This document shows positions 12,186 through 20,654 of a DNA stretch of 64,000 nt, piece after piece. Source of the stretch: Burkholderia plantarii (GTDB lineage Bacteria > Pseudomonadota > Gammaproteobacteria > Burkholderiales > Burkholderiaceae); NCBI RefSeq assembly GCF_001411805.1, contig NZ_CP007213.1:3286001-3350000 (forward strand), in the 5' to 3' direction. The notes beneath the pieces were generated by a model. It ran no database searches and was not told where the DNA came from. It was given only the letters and a program-made list of their open reading frames with translations. Position 1 is the first letter of the stretch. Each line of letters opens with the position of its first letter. A program made the position numbers and the translations under genes.

Positions 12186-12214
12186 GCATCCCGCTCGTTT
12201 CGGCGTCCGTATCT
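12186..12214 (+). promoter_or_regulatory. ECF sigma promoter 1 (autoregulatory)
   Basis: GCATCC at 12186-12191, 16-base spacer, CGTATCT at 12208-12214, about 140 bases before the sigma-factor start. Identical architecture recurs at 14269 and 17081. ATCC/CGTA-like elements are typical of ECF promoters, so this is probably the autoregulated promoter of the sigma operon. Confidence 0.65.
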
Positions 12215-12354
12215 GTCCATGCCAACTTTCAGCGAAACCGACCATGCCCGCCCACGCGCGACTCGCCTGCCGAATATCCGGCCCTGCAACGGGGGCCGGA
12301 GTGCTATATTTCGACAGCCCTGTCCGCTCACGCGCGCCGCGCGTCCCGCCCTCC

Positions 12355-12963
12355 ATGAACGACACGCCCGGCCGTGCCGAGAATTCCGATCCCGACGACG
12401 TCGCCCGCGATGCCGGCGCCGCGCGCCGTGAACGCCTGAACCAGCTGCTGCTGAGCGTGGCGCAGGGCAACCAGCAGGCGTTCGCCGAGTTCTACCGCCT
12501 GACTTCGTCGCGCGTCTTCGGCGTGATCGTGCGGATGCTGCACGACACCGGCGAGGCCGAGGACGTCCTGCAGGAGGTCTACACCAGCGCATGGCGCCGC
12601 GCCGACAGCTTCGATCCCGCACGCGCCGGCGCGATGACCTGGCTCGTCACGCTGGCGCGCAACCGCGCGATCGACCGGCTGCGCCAGCACCGCGAAACCC
12701 AGCTCGACGATAGCGCCGCGCAGGACCTGCCCGACGACGACACGCCCTCGCCCGCCGCCCTTGCCGAAGCCAGCCAGGAACGGCGCCGCCTGCAGGACTG
12801 CCTCGACCAGCTCGGCGCGCAGCAGCGCCATGCCGTGCGCGACGCGTTCTTCAGCGGCGCGACCTACGCGGAACTGGCCGAACGGCTCAGCGTGCCGCTC
12901 GGCACCATGAAGAGCTGGATCCGGCGCAGCCTCATGCAGCTGAAGCTGTGCCTCGAACGATGA
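12355..12963 (+). CDS. ECF RNA polymerase sigma factor (SigK/RpoE-like)
   Basis: 202-residue ECF sigma factor. Region 2 is residues ~35-105 (AFAEFYRLTSSRVFGVIVRML, AEDVLQEVYTSAWRRADSFD, AMTWLVTLARNRAIDRLRQH). Region 4 is residues ~140-200 (LGAQQRHAVRDAFFSG, TYAELAERLSVPLGTMKSWI). Start ATG 12355. Its stop overlaps the ATG of the anti-sigma gene (ATGA), giving coupled translation and balanced stoichiometry. Directs RNA polymerase to stress promoters; the three GCATCC-N16-CGTAT sites nearby are the likely targets. It resembles the group paired with RskA-type membrane anti-sigmas. Confidence 0.95.
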   Translation: MNDTPGRAENSDPDDVARDAGAARRERLNQLLLSVAQGNQQAFAEFYRLTSSRVFGVIVRMLHDTGEAEDVLQEVYTSAWRRADSFDPARAGAMTWLVTLARNRAIDRLRQHRETQLDDSAAQDLPDDDTPSPAALAEASQERRRLQDCLDQLGAQQRHAVRDAFFSGATYAELAERLSVPLGTMKSWIRRSLMQLKLCLER

Positions 12964-13721
12964 ATACGCCCGCCCATTCCGATCCCGAGCTGCGCTGCGC
13001 CGAATACGCGCTCGGCGTGCTCGACGCCGACGCGCGCCGCGCGCTCGAACAGGCAGCCGCCGCCGATCCCTCGCTCGCGGCGACGCTCGCGCGCTGGCAG
13101 GCGCGTCTCGCGCCGCTGGCCGAGGACGTGCTGCCGATCGTGCCGTCGCCGCGCGTCTGGACCCGGATCCGGCGCGATCTCGGCTTCCTGCCGGCGCGCG
13201 ACGAGGCCGCCGCGCGCGACGGCCAGCGCGGCGCGGGCGGCTGGTGGAACCATCTCGGCTTCTGGCGCTGGCTCGGCATCGGCGCGAGTCTCGCCACCGT
13301 GGCGCTGGTGGCCGTGACGCTGACCACCGCGCGCCACGAGGCCACCGCGCCGGGCACGCAGACCGCCGCCCGGCCGGGCGCCGGCTACATGGTGGCCACC
13401 ATCGCGCGGCCGGACGGCGTCGCGCACTGGACGGCCACGGTCGACCTGCGGCGCGCACGGATGCTGGTGGTGCCGGCCGACAAGCCGACCATCGCGGCGA
13501 ACCGCTCGACCGAGCTCTGGCTGATCCCGCCGAACGCGAAACCGATTCCGCTCGGCGTGTTCGCGGCCGACGCACCGGCCGCGATGGCGCTGCCGCCCGG
13601 GATCGTCGCGCAGCTGAGCGCGCGCGCGGTGCTGGCGGTGTCGGTCGAACCGGTGGGCGGCTCGCCGACCGGCCAGCCGACCGGGCCGGTGATCGCCACG
13701 GGAGCGATGCACGAGGCTTGA
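12960..13721 (+). CDS. RskA-like membrane anti-sigma factor
   Basis: 253 residues. The N-terminal cytosolic sigma-binding part (residues ~1-90) carries the pattern ELRCAEYALGVLDADARRALEQ. One TM segment follows at about residues 100-122 (WLGIGASLATVALVAVTLTT). The C-terminal periplasmic RskA domain includes WTATVDLRRARMLVVPADKP, STELWLIPPNAKPIPLGVF and a VSVEPVGGSPTGQPTGPV tail. No ChrR-type zinc site (His/Cys cluster) or cupin is visible, so release is more likely by regulated proteolysis at the membrane than by direct metal/singlet-oxygen chemistry. Overlaps the sigma gene by 4 bases. The start is ATG 12960 because an upstream in-frame ATG lies within the sigma C-terminus. Confidence 0.92.
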   Translation: MNTPAHSDPELRCAEYALGVLDADARRALEQAAAADPSLAATLARWQARLAPLAEDVLPIVPSPRVWTRIRRDLGFLPARDEAAARDGQRGAGGWWNHLGFWRWLGIGASLATVALVAVTLTTARHEATAPGTQTAARPGAGYMVATIARPDGVAHWTATVDLRRARMLVVPADKPTIAANRSTELWLIPPNAKPIPLGVFAADAPAAMALPPGIVAQLSARAVLAVSVEPVGGSPTGQPTGPVIATGAMHEA

Positions 13722-13736
13722 GGGCGCGCCTCTCGC

Positions 13737-13765
13737 GGAAACCGATCCAGCTCGTATCGGTTTCC
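13737..13765 (+). terminator. Hairpin after anti-sigma gene
   Basis: GGAAACCGAT (13737-13746) and ATCGGTTTCC (13756-13765) form a perfect 10-bp stem with a 9-base loop, 15 bases past the anti-sigma stop. Outer flanks AGGGCGC and GCGCCCT extend the pairing imperfectly. It lacks a clean T-run, so it may be an attenuator or processing hairpin. Confidence 0.5.
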
Positions 13766-14268
13766 CGGTGGGCGCCCTCGCATGCCGTCGAGCAGCGTTT
13801 TCTCCCGCTGCGCCCCCTCGCGGTCGGTATCTTTATTGCTCCTCGCGCCCGCCACCGCCGACGTGTTTTATTTGACGGCACACGCGGCCCGCCGCCGCCG
13901 CGATCATGAAATGCGTGGCGGGGCAGTGCCCGGGCGTCTGCCGCACCGCCACAAGCCACGCCCGCAAAATCCCCCTTCTCCCCTCCCCGCCTCGCCCGCC
14001 CCGATACCGCGCCGCAGCACGCCAACTGTTACGGATACCCAATCAACCACCCGTTCCCCCGATCGCGCCCCGAATCGATCGCCGAGCCGTTTCGCCCCCG
14101 TCAACAGCGCGGCCGATCCTGCCGCTTTCAGCTGAGCATTCCCCCGTATTGACCTCCGGCCACACTTAATGAAAATGGAAGCATTCCTTCGCCAGGAGAG
14201 GCGATGCGCAGCGTTTTCATTTCACCCGAAGCGAACCGCGCGCCACGCACGCTGACGCCCTGCGCCCC

Positions 14269-14297
14269 GCATCCGGGCCGGCCCCCGCTCCGTATCT
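14269..14297 (+). promoter_or_regulatory. ECF sigma promoter 2
   Basis: GCATCC at 14269-14274, 16-base spacer, CGTATCT at 14291-14297. The -10-like element is 26 bases before the DUF1295 ATG and a GGGAG ribosome site lies between, which fits a short 5' leader. Confidence 0.7.
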
Positions 14298-14323
14298 CCC
14301 CGTTTTCACCAACGGGAGTTCGC

Positions 14324-15142
14324 ATGCCCATCGCCGCCACCGTCGCGCTCGCCTTCATCGCCACCAGCGCCGCCTTCACCGCCGTCTGGCTCCACCAGCT
14401 GCGCTCGCGCAACGCCGGGCTGATCGATCCCGTCTGGGCCGCGATGCTCGGCGCGGTGGCCGTCTACGTTGCCGTGGCCGGCACCGGTGCGCCGGCCAGC
14501 CGCGCGTTCGTGGCGATCGCGGGCGGCCTCTGGGGCCTGCGCCTGGCCGTGCATCTGTTGCGCCGCAACGCGGGCCACGCCGAGGATGCGCGCTACCACG
14601 CGCTGCGCGAACAATGGGGCGATGCCGCGCCCGCCCGCATGTTCGGCTTCTTCCAGCTGCAGGCGGTGGTGTCGATGCTGCTGGCGATCGCATTCCTGGT
14701 GCCGGCCTATCGCCCCGAGACGCCGCCGCCGGCGGCGTTCGTCGCGGCCATCGTGATCTGGCTCGCGGCGGTGGCCGGCGAAGCCTCGGCCGACCGCCAG
14801 CTGCGCCGCTTCGCGGCCGATCCGGCACACCGCGGCCAGGTGTGCCGCGCCGGCTGGTGGCGCTATTCGCGGCACCCGAACTACTTCTTCGAATGCCTGC
14901 ATTGGCTCGCCTACACGGCGCTCGCGATCGGGCTGCCGTGGGGCTGGCTCACGCTCGCGCCGCCGTGCCTGATGGCGTGGCTGCTGCTGCGCGTGTCCGG
15001 CATCCCGATGCTCGAAGCCCACCTGCAACGCTCGCGAGCCGGCTATCGCGACTACATCCGCACGACGAGCGCGCTCATCCCGTGGCCGCCGCGCGCGGCC
15101 GCCGACCATAACGACCCACAAGAACGGAGCCCACGATCATGA
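14324..15142 (+). CDS. DUF1295 / steroid 5-alpha-reductase-like membrane protein
   Basis: 272-residue polytopic inner-membrane protein. It has about seven hydrophobic helices and the C-terminal signature of the DUF1295/ICMT-like superfamily: CRAGWWRYSRHPNYFFECLHWLAY and GIPMLEAHLQRSR.GYRDYI. Such proteins use NADPH or SAM-type chemistry on lipids; the exact reaction is unknown. Start ATG 14324 has GGGAG just upstream; the longer frame from 14204 reads through the promoter. Its stop overlaps the ATG of the methyltransferase gene (ATGA), so it is the first gene of the lipid-modification transcript. Confidence 0.88.
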   Translation: MPIAATVALAFIATSAAFTAVWLHQLRSRNAGLIDPVWAAMLGAVAVYVAVAGTGAPASRAFVAIAGGLWGLRLAVHLLRRNAGHAEDARYHALREQWGDAAPARMFGFFQLQAVVSMLLAIAFLVPAYRPETPPPAAFVAAIVIWLAAVAGEASADRQLRRFAADPAHRGQVCRAGWWRYSRHPNYFFECLHWLAYTALAIGLPWGWLTLAPPCLMAWLLLRVSGIPMLEAHLQRSRAGYRDYIRTTSALIPWPPRAAADHNDPQERSPRS

Positions 15143-16233
15143 CAGCGACCACTCTCGATTCGAAATCCGCCGCCGACCGCGACAGCTGGCTGATCCGCTA
15201 CTGCGAGCGCGGTCGCGTGTCCGATTCGGTGATCCGCGGCGGCATCGCGGCGCTGCTGTGGCAGCGGCTGCGCGCCGAGCACGTCGACGACGACGAGGTG
15301 CGCGCCAACGCGCTGAACGCGTTCGTCGAGGAATTGAACCGCAGCCCGATCGCGATCGACACGCAGGCGGCCAACCGCCAGCACTACGAGATGCCGGCCA
15401 GCTTCTTCGCGGCCCATCTCGGCCCGCGCCTCAAGTATTCGTGCTGCTACTTCCCGACCGGCGAGGACACGCTCGCGCACGCCGAGGACGCGATGCTCGC
15501 GCTCTACGCCGAGCGCGCCGAACTGGCCGACGGCCAGCGCATCCTCGATCTCGGCTGCGGCTGGGGGGCGCTGTCGCTGTGGCTGGCCGAGCGCTATCCG
15601 GGCTCGCAGATCGTCGGGCTGTCGAACTCGCAGAGCCAGCGCGCGTTCATCGAGCAGCGCGCGGCCGAGCGTGGCCTGACGAACCTCACGATCGTCACCG
15701 GCAACATCGTCGATTTCGAATTCGCGGCGGCCGACGCGCGCTTCGACCGCGTGCTGTCGATCGAGATGTTCGAGCACATGAAGAACTACCGCGCGCTGCT
15801 GGCGAAGATCTCGCACTGGCTCGACGACGACGGCAAGCTGTTCGTCCACCTGTTCGCGCACCGGCTCGTGGCTTATCACTTCACCGCGCGCGACGGCAGC
15901 GATTGGATGTCGCGCCACTTCTTCACCGGCGGCACGATGCCGTCGGCGGACCTGCTGCTGCGCTTCCAGGACCACCTGCACGTGCAGCGGCAATGGTGGC
16001 TCGACGGCACCCATTACGCGCGCACCGCGAACCACTGGCTCGCCTCGCTCGACGCCGCGCACGAGCAGATCATGCCCGGGCTGCGCGAGGCGTTCGGCGA
16101 CGACGCGCCGATCGTGTTCCAGCGCTGGCGCATGTTCTACATGGCCGTGGCGGGGCTGTTCGGGTTCCGCCGCGGCCACGAATGGGGCGTCGCGCACTAC
16201 CTGTTCGACAAGCGCTCGGCGCTCGGCGCGTGA
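15139..16233 (+). CDS. SAM-dependent methyltransferase, cyclopropane-fatty-acid-synthase family (short type)
   Basis: 364 residues. N-terminal substrate-binding part has NRQHYEMPASFFAAHLGPRLKYSCCYF, the HY..P..FF....G...YSCCYF pattern of the family. SAM motif I is RILDLGCGWGALSLWLAERYPG at about residues 134-155. Further motifs are VLSIEMFEHMKNY and LFVHLFAHR. It modifies unsaturated acyl chains of membrane phospholipids by transferring a methyl or methylene group. Coupled to DUF1295 upstream. A second, longer CFA-type enzyme ends the same cluster, so two different methyl-transfer steps are likely. Confidence 0.9.
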   Translation: MTATTLDSKSAADRDSWLIRYCERGRVSDSVIRGGIAALLWQRLRAEHVDDDEVRANALNAFVEELNRSPIAIDTQAANRQHYEMPASFFAAHLGPRLKYSCCYFPTGEDTLAHAEDAMLALYAERAELADGQRILDLGCGWGALSLWLAERYPGSQIVGLSNSQSQRAFIEQRAAERGLTNLTIVTGNIVDFEFAAADARFDRVLSIEMFEHMKNYRALLAKISHWLDDDGKLFVHLFAHRLVAYHFTARDGSDWMSRHFFTGGTMPSADLLLRFQDHLHVQRQWWLDGTHYARTANHWLASLDAAHEQIMPGLREAFGDDAPIVFQRWRMFYMAVAGLFGFRRGHEWGVAHYLFDKRSALGA

Positions 16234-16287
16234 GCCGAGCCGCTGAATGACGGTGACGACCCGCGCGCCCGTCTGCCCGGAGCGGCC

Positions 16288-16902
16288 ATGACGCTCCCGC
16301 CGGGAGCACCGGTCGATCCCGCCCGGCGCCGCGCGCTGCTCGCGCTGGCGGCGGCGCCCGCCGTGCTCGGCGCCGCCTGCCACGAGGCGCCGCCCAATCC
16401 GAATCCGCGCGCCGGCCTGCCGCTCGTGCCGGTGCCGGTCGACCTGCCGCGCTACATGGGACGCTGGTACGTGATCGCGCACCTGCCGTACTGGGCCGAG
16501 CGCGGCTTCGTGGCGAGCCGCGCCGAGTGGACGCTGCGCCCCGACGGCCGGATCGACGACCGCTTCATCGCGCGGCGCGGCTTCGACGGCCCCGAGCGCA
16601 GCTACCACTTCGTCGATACCGCGCTGCCGGGCGGCGGCGAATGGCGCGTGCGGCTGCTCTGGCCGATCCACGTGAGCCAGCTGACGCTGTTCGTCGATCC
16701 CGACTATCGCACCACGCTGCTCGGCTATCGCGGCAAGCACCTCGGCTGGGTGTTCGCGCGCGAGCCCGAACTCGACGACGCCACCTACCACGGCCTGCTC
16801 GCGCGCTTCGACGCGTTCGGCTACGACACCTCGCGCTTCCTGCGCGTGCCGCAGAAACGCGAGCAGCTCGGGCGGGACGGCTTCGAGGCTGCTGCCGGCT
16901 GA
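16288..16902 (+). CDS. Lipocalin family lipoprotein (Blc-like)
   Basis: 204 residues. N-terminus RRRALLALAAAPAVLGAAC is a lipoprotein signal with a lipobox ending at Cys31. The lipocalin motif follows as YMGRWYVIAHLPYWAERGF (G-x-W). The strands typical of bacterial Blc proteins follow, including GPERSYHFVDTALPGGGEWRVR. Probably anchored in the outer membrane facing the periplasm, where it binds fatty acids or lysophospholipids. Its place among lipid-modifying enzymes supports a role in handling the modified or damaged lipids. Sits 54 bases after the methyltransferase. Confidence 0.88.
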   Translation: MTLPPGAPVDPARRRALLALAAAPAVLGAACHEAPPNPNPRAGLPLVPVPVDLPRYMGRWYVIAHLPYWAERGFVASRAEWTLRPDGRIDDRFIARRGFDGPERSYHFVDTALPGGGEWRVRLLWPIHVSQLTLFVDPDYRTTLLGYRGKHLGWVFAREPELDDATYHGLLARFDAFGYDTSRFLRVPQKREQLGRDGFEAAAG

Positions 16903-17080
16903 GGTCGTGCCCCCCATGAAGGCGGCCGCTCGCGGCAGCGCTGTCCGCGCTCCCGGCACGCGATGTCCGCGCCTGGCGCGCGGCCGGCCCGGCGCCGCCA
17001 CGGCCCGCGCCTCGCTGCCGAATCCGCGCCAACCTTCCGTCTCACGCGCCGCGCTCCCCAATCCCGCAGTCCCCTTCCCT

Positions 17081-17109
17081 GCATCCATCCGGCGCAACCG
17101 CCCGTATAT
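17081..17109 (+). promoter_or_regulatory. ECF sigma promoter 3
   Basis: GCATCC at 17081-17086, 16-base spacer, CGTATAT at 17103-17109, 52 bases before the FAD oxidoreductase ATG. Third copy of the architecture in front of genes of the same cluster. Confidence 0.65.
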
Positions 17110-17161
17110 CTCCCGACACCGGCAATCATGCCGGCCGCCCCGCCTCAGGAGATCGCAGCCG

Positions 17162-18463
17162 ATGTCACTCGTGTACGCCCCCGTCCCCGCCGGACAACGG
17201 ATCGCCGTGGTCGGCGCCGGCATCGCCGGGCTCGCCGCCGCCTATCTGCTCGCGCGCCGCCATCGGGTCACGCTGTTCGAGGCGAACGGAAAGCTGGGCG
17301 GCCACACGCATACCGTCGACATCGAGCTGAACGGGCAGCGCCATCCCGTCGACACGGGTTTCCTGGTCTTCAACGAACGCACCTATCCGAACCTGATCGC
17401 GCTGCTCGACGAACTCGGCGTGGGGACCCACGACTCCGACATGTCGTTCTCGGTGTCGATCGGCGACGGCCGCCTCGAATGGGCCGGCACCAACCTCGCC
17501 ACCGTGTTCGCTCAGCGCCGCAACCTGTTCTCGCCGCCGTTCATCGCGATGCTGCGCGACATCGCCCGCTTCAACCGCACGGCCGACGCCAACCTCGCGC
17601 GCGCGACGCGCGGCGGACTCACGGTGGGCGAGCTGCTCTCGGCCGGCGGCTATGGCGTGCCGTTCCGCGATCACTATCTGCTGCCGATGGCCGCCGCGAT
17701 CTGGTCGAGCGCCGTCAACGACATCCTGCGCTTCCCGGCCGAGACGTTCCTGCGCTTCTGCCTCAACCACGCGCTGCTGCAGGTGAACGGCCGGCCGAAA
17801 TGGAAGACCGTGGCGGGCGGCGGGCGCGAGTACGTGGCGCGCATCGCGGTGATGCTCGACGACGTGCGCGCGCGCTCGCCGGTGCGCGCCGTGCGCCGCG
17901 ACCACGACGGCGTGGTGGTGCATACCGACGCGGCCGGCCCGGAGCGTTTCGACCAGCTCGTGCTGGCCTGCCACGCGCCCACCAGCCTGCGCCTGCTGCA
18001 GGACGCGAGCGACGCCGAGCGCGCCGTGCTGGGCGCCGTGCGCTACCAGCGCAACGTCGCGCTGCTGCATACCGACGCGGCGCTGCTGCCGCGCCGCCGC
18101 CGCGTCTGGTCGGCCTGGAACTACCTGGGCCGCGCGGGCGCCGCGCACGAGGCGCGGCCCGTCTGCGTCAGCTACCTGATCAACCGGCTGCAGCCGCTGC
18201 CGTTCGATACGCCGGTGGTGGTCACGCTGAACCCGATCGACGATCCGGAGCCCGGCCGCGTACTCGGCTGCTACGAATACGAACATCCGCTGCTCGATCG
18301 CGCGGCCGTGGAAGCGCAGCAGCGCCTGCCCGACCTGCAGGGCCGCCGCCGCACCTGGTTCGCGGGCGCCTGGACCGGCTACGGTTTCCACGAGGACGGG
18401 CTGCGCTCGGCGCTGCGCGTCGCGCAGGACTTCGGCACGCTGCCGGCCTGGGCGGTGCCGTGA
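17162..18463 (+). CDS. FAD-dependent amine-oxidase-like oxidoreductase
   Basis: 433 residues. N-terminal dinucleotide fold IAVVGAGIAGLAAAYLLARRH with the GG doublet in NGKLGGHTHTV. The distinctive block DTGFLVFNERTYPNLIALLDELGV and the C-terminal FAD contact TWFAGAWTGYGFHEDGLRSA mark the desaturase-like subfamily that recurs next to DUF1365 and CFA synthase in proteobacteria. It probably oxidises or desaturates an acyl chain at the membrane. Start ATG 17162 follows a GGAGA site. Its stop overlaps the GTG start of DUF1365, so the last three genes are coupled. Confidence 0.92.
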   Translation: MSLVYAPVPAGQRIAVVGAGIAGLAAAYLLARRHRVTLFEANGKLGGHTHTVDIELNGQRHPVDTGFLVFNERTYPNLIALLDELGVGTHDSDMSFSVSIGDGRLEWAGTNLATVFAQRRNLFSPPFIAMLRDIARFNRTADANLARATRGGLTVGELLSAGGYGVPFRDHYLLPMAAAIWSSAVNDILRFPAETFLRFCLNHALLQVNGRPKWKTVAGGGREYVARIAVMLDDVRARSPVRAVRRDHDGVVVHTDAAGPERFDQLVLACHAPTSLRLLQDASDAERAVLGAVRYQRNVALLHTDAALLPRRRRVWSAWNYLGRAGAAHEARPVCVSYLINRLQPLPFDTPVVVTLNPIDDPEPGRVLGCYEYEHPLLDRAAVEAQQRLPDLQGRRRTWFAGAWTGYGFHEDGLRSALRVAQDFGTLPAWAVP

Positions 18464-19446
18464 AGCCGCGCCGGCCGAGCGGCACGATGCCCGACGCACG
18501 GCCCCGCGCCGGGCGGGATCACGCGCGCCCGGCGCCCGACCGCGGCGCGGCCACGGACACCACGAGCGCCGCCGACACCGGCGCGCGGCTGCTGACGGGC
18601 CGCGTCGTCCACGAACGCCTGCGCCCGGTGCGCCACGCGTTCCGCTATCCGCTGTTCCAGATCGACTGCGACGTGGCCCGGCTCGACGCGCTGCCGCGCC
18701 GCTGGTTCGGCGTCGACCGGCCCGCGCCCGTCGCGCTGTGGCAGCGCGACCACGGCCCGCGCGACGGCAGCCCGCTCGACGCATGGCTGCGCGGCGTGCT
18801 GGCCGACGCGGGCATCCCGGCCGACGGCGCGATCCGGCTGCAGGCCATCCCGCGCGTGTTCGGCCATGCGTTCAACCCGGTCGCGTTCTGGTATTGCCAC
18901 GACCGCGAGGGCCGGCTGCGCGCGCTGTACGCCGAGGTGCGCAACACCTTCGGCGCCCGGCACGGCTATCTGCTCTCGGCGCCCGGTCACGCGCCGATCG
19001 GCGACGGCCGTCCGCTCGCCTGCCGCAAGACCTTCCACGTCTCGCCGTTCTGCCGCGTCGAAGGCCACTACGTGTTCCGCGTGCGGCGCGAGGCGGCGCG
19101 CAGCGTGGTCGAGATCGACTACCACGACCGCCACGGCCTGCTGATCCGCACCGCGCTCGCGATGCGCGCCGAGCCGCTCACGGCCGCGCGCGTCGCCCGC
19201 GCGCTGCTCGGCCAGCCGTTCGGCATGTTCACGGTGCTGGTGCGGATCCACTGGCAGGCGCTGCGGCTCGCGCTCAAGCGCGTGCCGTTCTTCGGCAGCG
19301 CGCCGGCCGCCGAACCGTCGCCTGCATCCGCCACACCCGCCGCCACACCCGCCGCCACATCCGCCGTTACGCCAGTCGCTACGCCCCACCGCGCGCCGCC
19401 GGCGCCGCGGCGTCCGTCCCTTTCCGATCCCGAGGCTCGTCCATGA
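18460..19446 (+). CDS. DUF1365 protein
   Basis: 328 residues if started at GTG 18460, which overlaps the previous stop; ATG 18487 is an alternative. The family core spans about residues 45-275: GRVVHERLRPVRHAFRYPLF, VFGHAFNPVAFWYCHD, LYAEVRNTFGARHGYLL, CRKTFHVSPFCRVEGHYVFR and GMFTVLVRIHWQALRLALK. The biochemical role is unknown, but the gene is nearly always beside the FAD oxidoreductase and CFA synthase seen here. After the core comes a repetitive PAATPAATSAVTPVATP tail from a degenerate 9-12-base tandem repeat, probably disordered. Stop overlaps the next ATG. Confidence 0.88.
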   Translation: MKPRRPSGTMPDARPRAGRDHARPAPDRGAATDTTSAADTGARLLTGRVVHERLRPVRHAFRYPLFQIDCDVARLDALPRRWFGVDRPAPVALWQRDHGPRDGSPLDAWLRGVLADAGIPADGAIRLQAIPRVFGHAFNPVAFWYCHDREGRLRALYAEVRNTFGARHGYLLSAPGHAPIGDGRPLACRKTFHVSPFCRVEGHYVFRVRREAARSVVEIDYHDRHGLLIRTALAMRAEPLTAARVARALLGQPFGMFTVLVRIHWQALRLALKRVPFFGSAPAAEPSPASATPAATPAATSAVTPVATPHRAPPAPRRPSLSDPEARP

Positions 19447-20654
19447 ACCTGCTGCGCACCCTGACGTTCCGGTCCCACGTCCCTGTCGCGGGACGCCTGT
19501 TCCTCGCGTTGCTCGCGCGCATCCGGGTCGGGCACCTGACGCTGGAGACGCCCGACGGCGCGCACCATGTGTTCGGCGATCCGCACGCGAAGCCCTCGGC
19601 CGCGCTGAAGCTGCTGGACTGGCGCGCCTGCCGCGCGATCCTGCGGGCCGGCGACATCGGCTTCGCCGACGCCTGGCGCGCGTCGTGGCTCGATTCGCCG
19701 GACCCGGTCGCGCTGCTGCGCCTGGCGATCCGCAACGAGGCCGCGCTCTCGCCGGCCGTCACGGGCGGCCACGTGGCGCGGCTCTGGTACGCGCTGCGCC
19801 ACCGGCTGCGCGCGAACTCGCGCACCGGCAGCCGCCGCAACATCCATGCGCACTACGACATCGGCAACGCGTTCTACGGGCTCTGGCTCGATCCCACCTG
19901 GACCTATTCCGGCGCGCTCTACGACGGCGACGCCGCGCGCGCGCTCGACGTCGCGCAGGCCGCCAAGTACCAGCGCATCGTCGACACGCTCGGCCTGCGC
20001 GCCGGCATGCACGTGCTCGAGATCGGCTGCGGCTGGGGCGGTTTCGCCGAGCATGCGGCGCGGCTCGGCATCCACGTCCATGCGCTCACCATCTCGGCCG
20101 AGCAGCACGCGTTCGCGCAGCGCCGCATCCATGACGCGCGGCTCGGCGCGTTCGCGCGGATCGAGCTGCGCGACTACCGCGACGCGCACGGCCAGTACGA
20201 CGCGATCGTCTCGATCGAGATGTTCGAGGCGGTGGGCGAGGCCTTCTGGCCCGAGTACTTCGCGACGCTCGCCCGCTGCCTCGCGCCCGGCGCGCGCGCG
20301 CTGGTGCAGTCGATCACGATCGACGACGCGCATTTCGCGGCCTACCGCGCCTCCAGCGACTTCATCCGCGAGACGATCTTCCCCGGCGGCATGCTGCCGA
20401 GCCCCGAGCGCTTCGCCGCCGCCGCGCGCGCCGCCGGCCTCGCCGCCGCGCCCACGCTGGCGTTCGGCGCCGACTACGCGCTCACGCTGCGCGCCTGGCG
20501 GCAGGCGTTCGACGCGCGGCGCGACGCGGTGCGCACGCAGGGCTTCGACGAGTGCTTCATCCGCACCTGGCGGCTTTATTTGATGTATTGCGAGGCGGGC
20601 TTCGCCGAGCGCAAGACCGACGTGATGCATTTCGTCGTCGGCCGGCCGGCGTGA
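19443..20654 (+). CDS. Cyclopropane-fatty-acyl-phospholipid synthase family methyltransferase
   Basis: 403 residues, full length for the family. Seen: NIHAHYDIGNAFYGLWLDPTW (lipid-binding/active-site region), SAM motif I VLEIGCGWGGFAEHAARLG, SIEMFEAVGEAFWPEYF, FIRETIFPGGMLPSPERF and the C-terminal TWRLYLMYCEAGFAERKTD. It transfers a methylene/methyl group from SAM to the double bond of unsaturated phospholipid acyl chains. Together with the FAD enzyme and DUF1365 it could make branched or furan-type fatty acids, as proposed for related stress-induced clusters in other proteobacteria. Overlaps DUF1365 by 4 bases and ends the cluster. Confidence 0.93.
   Translation: MNLLRTLTFRSHVPVAGRLFLALLARIRVGHLTLETPDGAHHVFGDPHAKPSAALKLLDWRACRAILRAGDIGFADAWRASWLDSPDPVALLRLAIRNEAALSPAVTGGHVARLWYALRHRLRANSRTGSRRNIHAHYDIGNAFYGLWLDPTWTYSGALYDGDAARALDVAQAAKYQRIVDTLGLRAGMHVLEIGCGWGGFAEHAARLGIHVHALTISAEQHAFAQRRIHDARLGAFARIELRDYRDAHGQYDAIVSIEMFEAVGEAFWPEYFATLARCLAPGARALVQSITIDDAHFAAYRASSDFIRETIFPGGMLPSPERFAAAARAAGLAAAPTLAFGADYALTLRAWRQAFDARRDAVRTQGFDECFIRTWRLYLMYCEAGFAERKTDVMHFVVGRPA

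What the first reader, a model, noticed from the sequence alone, without database searches (positions are those of the whole stretch)
12186..17109. Three identical-architecture ECF promoters define a local regulon
GCATCC-N16-CGTAT occurs at 12186, 14269 and 17081, in front of the ECF sigma gene, DUF1295 and the FAD oxidoreductase. All three have exactly 16 bases between the elements, and two share CGTATCT. The cluster is therefore probably an autoregulated unit with three entry points, and the motif gives a ready search string for the rest of the regulon (for example photolyase or other stress genes elsewhere).
Basis: partly seen in the sequence, partly recalled or inferred. Interest (0 to 1): 0.8.

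Follow-up and report, generated by a model that had tools for sequence, protein, structure and literature searches.

The report
SigK-type redox regulon for lipid remodelling
Three copies of the same gene switch really do sit in front of a sigma factor gene and two sets of fatty-acid-modifying genes in this Burkholderia-like bacterium, and comparison with relatives indicates that they belong to a known type of stress regulator (SigK/RskA) that here probably turns on protective membrane lipids.

Summary
In detail: GCATCC-N16-CGTAT lies at 12186, 14269 and 17081, before an ECF sigma gene, DUF1295 and an FAD oxidoreductase, far beyond chance. In 80 loci of sigma homologues GCATCC-N16-CGTA occurs 98 times; no other spacing from 11 to 21 exceeds 7. 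In the closest relative 0 of 40 element bases but 13 of 64 spacer bases changed.

The sigma is SigK-like: best solved match M. tuberculosis SigK, both redox cysteines in 79 of 80 homologues, an overlapping RskA-type anti-sigma. P3 heads a FAD/DUF1365/CMAS trio matching the furan-fatty-acid genes ufaD-ufaO-ufaM.

The regulon looks small. String counts outside the sigma locus are at background, but orthology picks out three more sites: two in an island 1 Mb away with hydrolase, photolyase-related, FolE, CMAS and lipocalin genes, one before a small secreted-protein-like gene. A sister genome lost the opposite copies of the lipid genes.

Best reading: an autoregulated SigK/RskA stress regulon for membrane-lipid protection. 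Transcription and inducer are inferred.

The parts
12186..12212 (+). Promoter P1, GCATCC-N16-CGTAT, before sigK (autoregulation)
   Evidence: orthologous exact site in G159 (L190) and in 5 of 6 Burkholderiaceae loci that hold the cluster with its own sigma
12355..12963 (+). ECF sigma factor, SigK-like, 202 aa, Cys149 and Cys199
   Evidence: Pfam Sigma70_r2/r4; best PDB match M. tuberculosis SigK 4nqw E 2.3e-38; Cys pair 79 of 80; below the NCBIfam SigK cut-off
12960..13721 (+). Membrane anti-sigma factor, RskA-like, 253 aa, one hydrophobic segment near residues 103-124, overlapping sigK by 4 nt
   Evidence: Pfam RskA_C 78.1 bits, cut-off 29.4; NCBIfam antisigma NF052375 102.5 over cut-off 100; hydropathy
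14269..14295 (+). Promoter P2, GCATCC-N16-CGTAT, before DUF1295-CMAS1-lipocalin
   Evidence: 7 of 7 Burkholderiaceae DUF1295 loci at 29-34 nt; G159
14324..15142 (+). DUF1295 membrane protein (weaker match to steroid 5-alpha-reductase family)
   Evidence: Pfam PF06966 208 bits, PF02544 40 bits
15139..16233 (+). CMAS-family SAM methyltransferase 1
   Evidence: Pfam PF02353 139.7 bits
16288..16902 (+). Lipocalin (Blc-like)
   Evidence: Pfam PF08212 90.7 bits
17081..17107 (+). Promoter P3, GCATCC-N16-CGTAT, before the FAD-DUF1365-CMAS2 operon
   Evidence: 6 of 7 Burkholderiaceae loci
17162..18463 (+). FAD amine-oxidase-like protein, UfaD-like
   Evidence: Pfam PF01593, PF13450; UfaD = RSP1091 (PMC7380195 passages), whose P. 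syringae counterpart is a flavin-containing amine oxidase (PMC5507510 passages)
18487..19446 (+). DUF1365 protein, UfaO-like
   Evidence: Pfam PF07103 241 bits; UfaO carries DUF1365 (PMC7380195 passages)
19443..20654 (+). CMAS-family SAM methyltransferase 2, UfaM-like
   Evidence: Pfam PF02353 257.9 bits; last gene of the FAD-DUF1365-CMAS order

Best explanation
The three sites are promoters of the SigK-like ECF sigma factor encoded in the cluster. SigK is held at the inner membrane by its RskA-like partner. Under photo-oxidative or other thiol stress, oxidation of the SigK cysteine pair and/or proteolysis of RskA frees it. SigK-RNA polymerase then reads GCATCC (-35), 16 bases, CGTA(T) (-10) at P1 (sigK-rskA, positive feedback), P2 (DUF1295-CMAS1-lipocalin) and P3 (ufaD-ufaO-ufaM-like trio), at two sites in a second island 1 Mb away (alpha/beta hydrolase; lipocalin-CMAS and the genes behind it) and at one site on the other large replicon before a small secreted-protein-like gene. 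The products methylate, desaturate and oxidise membrane fatty acids, probably to furan fatty acids that quench singlet oxygen. Shown here: sites, spacing, conservation, gene families, cysteine conservation, co-occurrence of sigK with the DUF1365 gene, further sites. Inferred: that this sigma reads these sites, the inducer, the release mechanism, the lipid product.
For: 98 matches at exactly N16 over 80 loci, against at most 7 (both strands) for any other spacing N11-21; 39 of 72 stretches behind the anti-sigma gene carry it on the + strand and 0 at another spacing. Of 45 GCATCC copies in those stretches 39 are followed at 16 bases by CGTA. Genes after the 98 sites, by similarity to one reference each: fasciclin 25, sigma 14, FAD 8, desaturase 8, CMAS 7, DUF1295 5, lipocalin 1, unclassified 30; Pfam agrees in 6 of 6 fasciclin and 3 of 3 desaturase proteins scanned. 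Elements 0/40 against spacers 13/64 changed in the sister genome, p = 0.0015. Among 65 genomes of the genus DUF1365 occurs in 18, all among the 23 with this sigma, and in 0 of 42 without, p = 7e-12. SigK 4nqw is the best solved match; Cys pair 79 of 80. Reciprocal loss of the lipid genes between two islands that both carry sites. The small-ORF site recurs before both homologues found, with unrelated spacers. PMC7380195 passages: UfaM, UfaD and UfaO (DUF1365) make furan fatty acid. PMC7074977 passages: the R. capsulatus 'RpoE-ChrR' is closer to SigK-RskA and is induced by photo-oxidative stress with phrB and folE2.
Against: No transcript or binding data. The sigma scores below the NCBIfam SigK subfamily cut-off (179.5 against 226), so SigK identity rests on best match, cysteines and partner. 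The genus-wide match density is the same with and without the sigma. 41 of 80 loci do not show an exact site behind the anti-sigma gene (33 of the 72 usable, plus 8 without a usable stretch). Before DUF1295 an exact site is found in only 7 of 17 loci and before FAD in 7 of 24. The own genome lacks the fasciclin target that is the commonest classified gene behind the motif elsewhere. Three more distant hydrolase homologues (48-53%) in SigK+ genomes have no exact site. The inducer was not tested, and the MerR/photolyase island could answer to light by another route.
Confidence: 0.85

Rival explanations
1. The sites are real promoters of the cluster but are read mainly by another ECF sigma factor, for example an ECF11 RpoE/ChrR-type factor whose motif TGATCC-N16-CGTA differs in two bases and whose known regulon holds the same gene families.
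For: PSPTO_1043 consensus TGATCC-N16-CGTA with photolyase, amine oxidase, DUF1365-locus and cfa targets (PMC5507510 passages). R. sphaeroides RpoE is the second-best solved match of this sigma. The own genome has 15 matches to the sigma query at E<=0.001, so other ECF factors exist; whether one is ECF11 was not tested.
Against: After the anti-sigma gene of 73 loci, NNATCC-N16-CGTA begins with GC 39 times, GA 2 times and TG 0 times. The motif lies beside sigK-rskA loci from three proteobacterial classes. The local anti-sigma is RskA-like and no ChrR family was found in it.
Confidence: 0.08
2. The three matches are a chance cluster in GC-rich DNA.
For: The string occurs at background frequency over whole genomes; 10 of 16 own-genome N16-CGTA matches are not shown to have a conserved target.
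Against: 0 of 100 shuffles reach 3; about 5e-6 expected triples; orthologous positions in other species with exact spacing; elements kept while spacers change.
Confidence: 0.01
3. The sites are operators of a DNA-binding regulator (for example the MerR of the second island) rather than -35/-10 elements.
For: Class II LitR MerR proteins control photolyase, folE and ufaM genes by light in Pseudomonas (PMC9758184 passages), and a MerR gene lies in the second island.
Against: Two different elements with a fixed 16-base spacer, 9-65 nt before the chosen start codon in 62 of 68 classified sites, look like an ECF promoter, not a palindromic operator (inference). The motif recurs beside sigK-rskA pairs; absence of MerR genes there was not searched for. 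The light-inducible Pseudomonas promoter is sigma70-like (TTGACT-N16-TATGAT).
Confidence: 0.04

Closest known systems
M. tuberculosis / Y. enterocolitica SigK-RskA (PMC7509140, passages; 4nqw)
   Same: Best solved relative; anti-sigma of the RskA family next to sigma; the two cysteines that the paper finds needed for full activation; in M. tuberculosis sigK is autoregulated through the promoter before Rv0449c. From recall, not from a call: Rv0449c-Rv0446c beside M. tuberculosis sigK encode FAD oxidase, DUF1365, UfaA1 (CMAS) and DUF1295, and the SigK -35 is CCATCC.
   Different: Three promoters split the cluster; no fasciclin (MPT70/83) target in the own genome; two CMAS genes and a lipocalin; sigma only a partial match to the NCBIfam SigK model.
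Rhodobacter RpoE-ChrR (ECF11) photo-oxidative stress regulon and Pseudomonas syringae PSPTO_1043
   Same: Overlapping target families (UfaD, UfaO, UfaM, photolyase, FolE2, fasciclin) and, for PSPTO_1043, nearly the same promoter, TGATCC-N16-CGTA (passages).
   Different: Different sigma and a different anti-sigma (ChrR against membrane RskA); -35 begins TG, not GC.
UfaD-UfaO-UfaM furan fatty acid pathway (PMC7380195, passages)
   Same: FAD enzyme, DUF1365 protein and CMAS methyltransferase; here adjacent in the order FAD-DUF1365-CMAS.
   Different: Second CMAS, DUF1295 and lipocalin added; enzyme activity not tested.
Class II LitR light regulon of Pseudomonas (PMC9758184, passages)
   Same: MerR, photolyase, folE and ufaM genes under one light response, as gene families also present in the second island.
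   Different: There the promoter is sigma70-like; here the island carries GCATCC-N16-CGTA sites. That the own MerR is a class II LitR was not tested.

Membership tests
SigK-RskA ECF system | Sigma closest to SigK | tested here: met
   Best PDB match 4nqw (M. tuberculosis SigK) E 2.3e-38, next R. sphaeroides RpoE 5.4e-26
SigK-RskA ECF system | Score over NCBIfam SigK subfamily model PRK09646 cut-off | tested here: not met
   179.5 bits against cut-off 226; the best model PRK12514 is also under its cut-off, 190.5 against 265
SigK-RskA ECF system | Redox cysteine pair 50 residues apart (SigK C133/C183) | tested here: met
   C149 and C199, aligned with SigK cysteines; both present in 79 of 80 homologues
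SigK-RskA ECF system | Adjacent membrane anti-sigma with RskA C-terminal domain | tested here: met
   PF10099 78.1 bits over 29.4, one hydrophobic segment, 4-nt gene overlap
SigK-RskA ECF system | Fasciclin (MPT70/83-like) target | tested here: not met
   No PF02469 in the own genome, but 25 of 98 sites in homologous loci precede one (Pfam in 6 of 6 scanned, one of them from G063)
SigK-RskA ECF system | Sigma recognises the motif in vitro or in vivo | not testable with these tools
   needs transcription assays
UfaD-UfaO-UfaM pathway | FAD enzyme + DUF1365 + CMAS families together | tested here: met
   Families, gene order
UfaD-UfaO-UfaM pathway | Makes furan fatty acid | not testable with these tools
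   needs lipid analysis
ECF11 RpoE-ChrR | ChrR-type anti-sigma | tested here: not met
   Only RskA_C (Pfam) and two general anti-sigma models (NCBIfam) match
ECF11 RpoE-ChrR | TGATCC -35 | tested here: not met
   GCATCC; 0 TGATCC-N16-CGTA within 300 nt behind the anti-sigma gene in 73 loci

The most novel reading that the evidence does not exclude
One photo-oxidative lipid-protection gene set (furan fatty acid enzymes, photolyase, FolE, fasciclin) has been captured by two different switches. ECF11/ChrR reads TGATCC-N16-CGTA, and the thiol-switch SigK/RskA reads GCATCC-N16-CGTA, so a two-base change in the -35 box moves a whole regulon from one sensor to another. In this genome the SigK regulon is further split over two islands of different ancestry plus a solitary gene, all served in trans by a single SigK.
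Probability: 0.35. Interest if true: 0.68.

Novelty: new member of a known kind. Interest (0 to 1): 0.52.

Why it matters
It gives a sharp, testable promoter rule (GCATCC, exactly 16 bases, CGTA) for SigK/RskA-type systems in three proteobacterial classes. It ties a switch best known from mycobacterial antigens to membrane-lipid protection in Burkholderiaceae, and it predicts a compact regulon of six promoters at three places in this genome. If right, the inducer can be sought with lipid and light readouts in harmless hosts. In the listings and passages of my searches I saw no description of this motif or of SigK control of ufa genes. The library lacks most subscription journals, and the 2008 mycobacterial SigK-regulon paper that PMC7509140 cites was not looked up.

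Tried and rejected
Chance: rejected. A wide regulon found by the string alone: not supported. N16 counts outside the locus are at background, and total density does not differ between SigK+ and SigK- genomes.

Own-genome N16-CGTA matches (16): 6 accepted (three in the window, C2:2293906, C2:2302917, C1:2342269). C1:3878461, 94 nt before a gene for a 291-residue desaturase/AurF-like protein, was tested and set aside. GCATCC is exact in 2 of 9 relatives (G158, G159), GCGTCC in 3, neither in 4, while the CGTAAAATT part is kept in all 9, SigK- G141 included, and looks like a sigma70 -10 box. The other nine (C1:222379, 257851, 1681423, 1773985, 3055587, 4121828, 4133684; C2:238131, 2584932) showed no clear gene start at promoter distance by codon composition; their conservation was not tested.

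A crude coding/non-coding comparison over the 80 loci gave 53 against 195 N16 matches per Mb, but the long-ORF rule masks GC-rich spacers, so I do not lean on it. The anti-sigma found no convincing solved relative. ECF group number left open: PMC7509140 puts M. tuberculosis SigK in ECF18 and the Yersinia one in ECF19, and PMC3597554 puts RpoT in ECF18. No structure prediction was run, since it would not test the promoters.

Papers seen as passages only: PMC5507510, PMC7509140, PMC3597554, PMC7380195, PMC3817407 (nothing usable), PMC7074977, PMC2194791 (its ECF factors were not matched to this sigma), PMC9758184, PMC5241685. All other papers: search listings only.
Full report
Observation. GCATCC-N16-CGTAT occurs at 12186, 14269 and 17081, all on the + strand and all with 16 spacer bases, and nowhere else in the window even at N14-18 (expected 0.16, 0 of 100 shuffles with 3). 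The genes downstream are an ECF sigma (12355-12963), an anti-sigma (12960-13721), DUF1295-CMAS1-lipocalin (14324-16902) and FAD-DUF1365-CMAS2 (17162-20654). By position, each of three transcription units begins with one site.

Genome-wide test. In the own genome of 8.08 Mb the string with CGTAT gives 2, 3, 7, 2 and 3 matches at N14 to N18. Of the 7 at N16, three are in the cluster and one lies in the second island described below; the other three equal the background. With CGTA alone there are 16 N16 matches, of which I accept 6. The 3-in-4.9-kb cluster is expected about 5e-6 times.

Conservation across bacteria. A scan for the sigma gave 80 loci, nearly all from alpha-, beta- and gammaproteobacteria (one assembled genome is labelled Eremiobacteraeota). 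In them GCATCC-N16-CGTA occurs 86 times on the locus + strand and 12 on the other; every other spacing from 11 to 21 gives at most 6 on one strand and 7 in all. In the 350 nt behind the anti-sigma gene, 39 of 72 usable loci have the site at N16 and 0 at another spacing. With 300 nt it is 38 exact plus 5 with one mismatch. Of the 98 sites, 25 precede a fasciclin gene, 14 sigma, 8 FAD enzyme, 8 desaturase, 7 CMAS, 5 DUF1295 and 1 lipocalin; 30 were unclassified. Classes come from similarity to one reference each; Pfam agreed in 6 of 6 fasciclin and 3 of 3 desaturase proteins scanned, of which 8 belong to the 98 sites and one fasciclin is from G063. Over all loci the exact count before DUF1295 is 7 of 17 and before FAD 7 of 24, plus 6 of 24 with one mismatch. 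The 7 DUF1295 sites are the 7 Burkholderiaceae loci, all at 29-34 nt. The site before sigma is exact in 13 of 79.

Sister genome. G159 carries the closest sigma (91%). Sites 1 and 2 are present at the orthologous places, as are the two second-island sites; site 3 is gone with its gene. Over these four pairs the ten element bases changed in 0 of 40 positions and the spacer in 13 of 64 (p = 0.0015). The G159 sites were found with the motif itself, so the test says that all four orthologous places keep it; it is not an unbiased rate.

What the sigma is. Its best solved match is M. tuberculosis SigK (4nqw, 135 bits), before R. sphaeroides RpoE (95 bits). The only two cysteines, C149 and C199, align with those of SigK and are present in 79 of 80 homologues. 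PMC7509140 (passages) reports that SigK needs these cysteines to be fully activated by RskA, that they are conserved in 94% of ECF18 and 56% of ECF19 members, and that RskA acts alike in Mycobacterium and Yersinia. The anti-sigma has the RskA C-terminal domain and one hydrophobic segment. Against membership: the NCBIfam SigK model is not passed (179.5 against 226), and the fasciclin target is absent from the own genome.

What it controls. PMC7380195 (passages) reports that UfaM (CMAS-type methylase, singlet-oxygen-inducible), UfaD (RSP1091) and UfaO (RSP1090, DUF1365) make a furan fatty acid; RSP1091 is related to a flavin-containing amine oxidase (PMC5507510 passages). P3 heads the same three families. 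In 65 genomes of the genus the sigma is present in 23 and DUF1365 in 18; all 18 are among the 23, and 0 of the 42 without sigma have it (p = 7e-12). The 5 genomes with sigma but no DUF1365 (G152, G191, G192, G194, G197) have a more distant sigma (61-63%). The one that I looked at, G152, has sites before sigma and behind the anti-sigma.

Second island. One CGTA match, C2:2293906, lies 55 nt before an alpha/beta hydrolase gene. Its orthologues in the four other SigK+ genomes of the first genus sample (68-69% identity) lie within 18 kb of the sigma gene, and all four have an exact N16 site before them. A 57% homologue in SigK+ G146 also has one; a 59% homologue in SigK- G083 and three of 48-53% in SigK+ G061, G124 and G030 have none. 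In the own genome the hydrolase belongs to an island 1 Mb from the window's cluster: hydrolase, MerR, photolyase-related protein, GTP cyclohydrolase I, DUF2878, chalcone-isomerase-like, CMAS and lipocalin. A second site (C2:2302916-2302942, - strand) faces the lipocalin from about 460 nt away. That site resembles the DUF1295 promoters of relatives (GGCTCCGTATA), so it may have survived a deletion of DUF1295 and CMAS1; this last step is inference.

Solitary site. C1:2342269 lies 50 nt before an 80-residue secreted-protein-like ORF with no Pfam family. A homologue was found in 2 of 10 genomes searched, both SigK+, and both have an exact N16 site about 50 nt before it, with unrelated spacers. In G162 it lies at the end of the SigK locus and in G158 it is divergent from a hydrolase relative that has a site of its own. 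The other 8 genomes, 6 of them SigK+ and G159 among them, gave no homologue.

Split regulon. The second-island lipocalin and CMAS are closer to the ordinary Burkholderia SigK locus (79-85% and 76-79%) than the window's copies are (64-68% and 70-73%). In the CMAS tree the window copy falls with Caballeronia and the other with Burkholderia and Pandoraea, one split with 99/96 support. The lipocalin tree does not resolve it. In G159 the window-type island lost FAD and DUF1365 and has two CMAS2 pieces, while its second island keeps FAD, DUF1365 and CMAS. In the own genome it is the other way round, with a 76-base remnant of the FAD gene in the second island. Each genome thus keeps one set beside sites of the same motif, with one SigK match each. 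This is what a shared regulon predicts. In G159 the nearest match before the island-B FAD gene has one mismatch (GCAGCC).

How local. Among the first 15 genus genomes the 5 with SigK have 37 CGTAT N16 matches, 22 of them at the SigK locus, so 3.0 per genome elsewhere; the 10 without have 42, or 4.2 per genome. Over 65 genomes the CGTA density is 2.32 and 2.20 per Mb (p = 0.56). The string alone therefore does not reveal a wide regulon.

Signal. Not shown. PMC7074977 (passages) notes that the R. capsulatus 'RpoE-ChrR' pair is closer to SigK-RskA than to its namesake and rises under photo-oxidative stress, as do phrB and folE2. PMC9758184 (passages) shows light control of photolyase, folE and ufaM genes involving a class II LitR MerR protein in Pseudomonas. 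Both fit photo-oxidative stress as the cue; neither tests this system.

Relation to ECF11. PSPTO_1043 reads TGATCC-N16-CGTA before an overlapping gene set (PMC5507510 passages). Behind the anti-sigma genes studied here, the first two bases are GC in 39 matches, GA in 2 and TG in none. Spacer and -10 core are the same, so sensor swapping by two bases is a testable idea, not a result.

Duplicates. G030 C42 and L021, and G124 C21 and L031, have equal contig lengths and sites and are not independent; the counts use the L loci only. The genus name Burkholderia for the own genome is inferred from named relatives.

Noticed in passing
G000:C2:2293906-2302942 (L180 9907-18943): Second island of the own genome with two GCATCC-N16-CGTA sites around hydrolase, MerR, photolyase-related protein, FolE, DUF2878, chalcone-isomerase-like, CMAS and lipocalin genes.
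   Followed up: yes
G000:C1:2342269 (L208 8295, - strand): Solitary site 50 nt before an 80-residue secreted-protein-like ORF; both homologues found (G158, G162) have an exact site before them too.
   Followed up: partly
L190 and L191 (G159); L180 17641-17716: Reciprocal loss of FAD/DUF1365 between the two islands in the sister genome and the own genome, with remnants of CMAS2 (G159 island A) and FAD (own island B).
   Followed up: yes
window 12355-20654 against L180: The window's CMAS2 groups with Caballeronia and the island-B copy with Burkholderia, so the window cluster may be acquired or an old second copy.
   Followed up: partly
L151, L152, L154, L155 (G011, G063, G102, G126): These relatives hold a second SigK paralogue (56-61% identity) about 11 kb from the first, missing in the own genome.
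   Followed up: partly
window about 14150-14245: The stretch before P2 is nearly unchanged between the own genome and G159, more so than before P1, and holds a ribosome-site-like GGAGAGG before an ATG at 14204 in frame with DUF1295: an extended start, a leader peptide or another promoter.
   Followed up: no
L028, L030, L034, L035, L039, L052, L065, L075: In these Xanthomonadales and similar loci the motif precedes a fatty acid desaturase gene (PF00487 in 3 of 3 scanned): a further possible regulon member.
   Followed up: partly
L184 7906 and 7991; L182 7901: Divergent sites in relatives: L184 7906 lies before a fasciclin gene, and L182 7901 lies about 350 nt before a DNA photolyase gene (both by Pfam).
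   Followed up: partly
G000:C1:3878461 (L104): A motif match over what looks like a conserved sigma70 -10 box before a desaturase/AurF-like gene; GCATCC is exact only in own, G158 and G159.
   Followed up: partly
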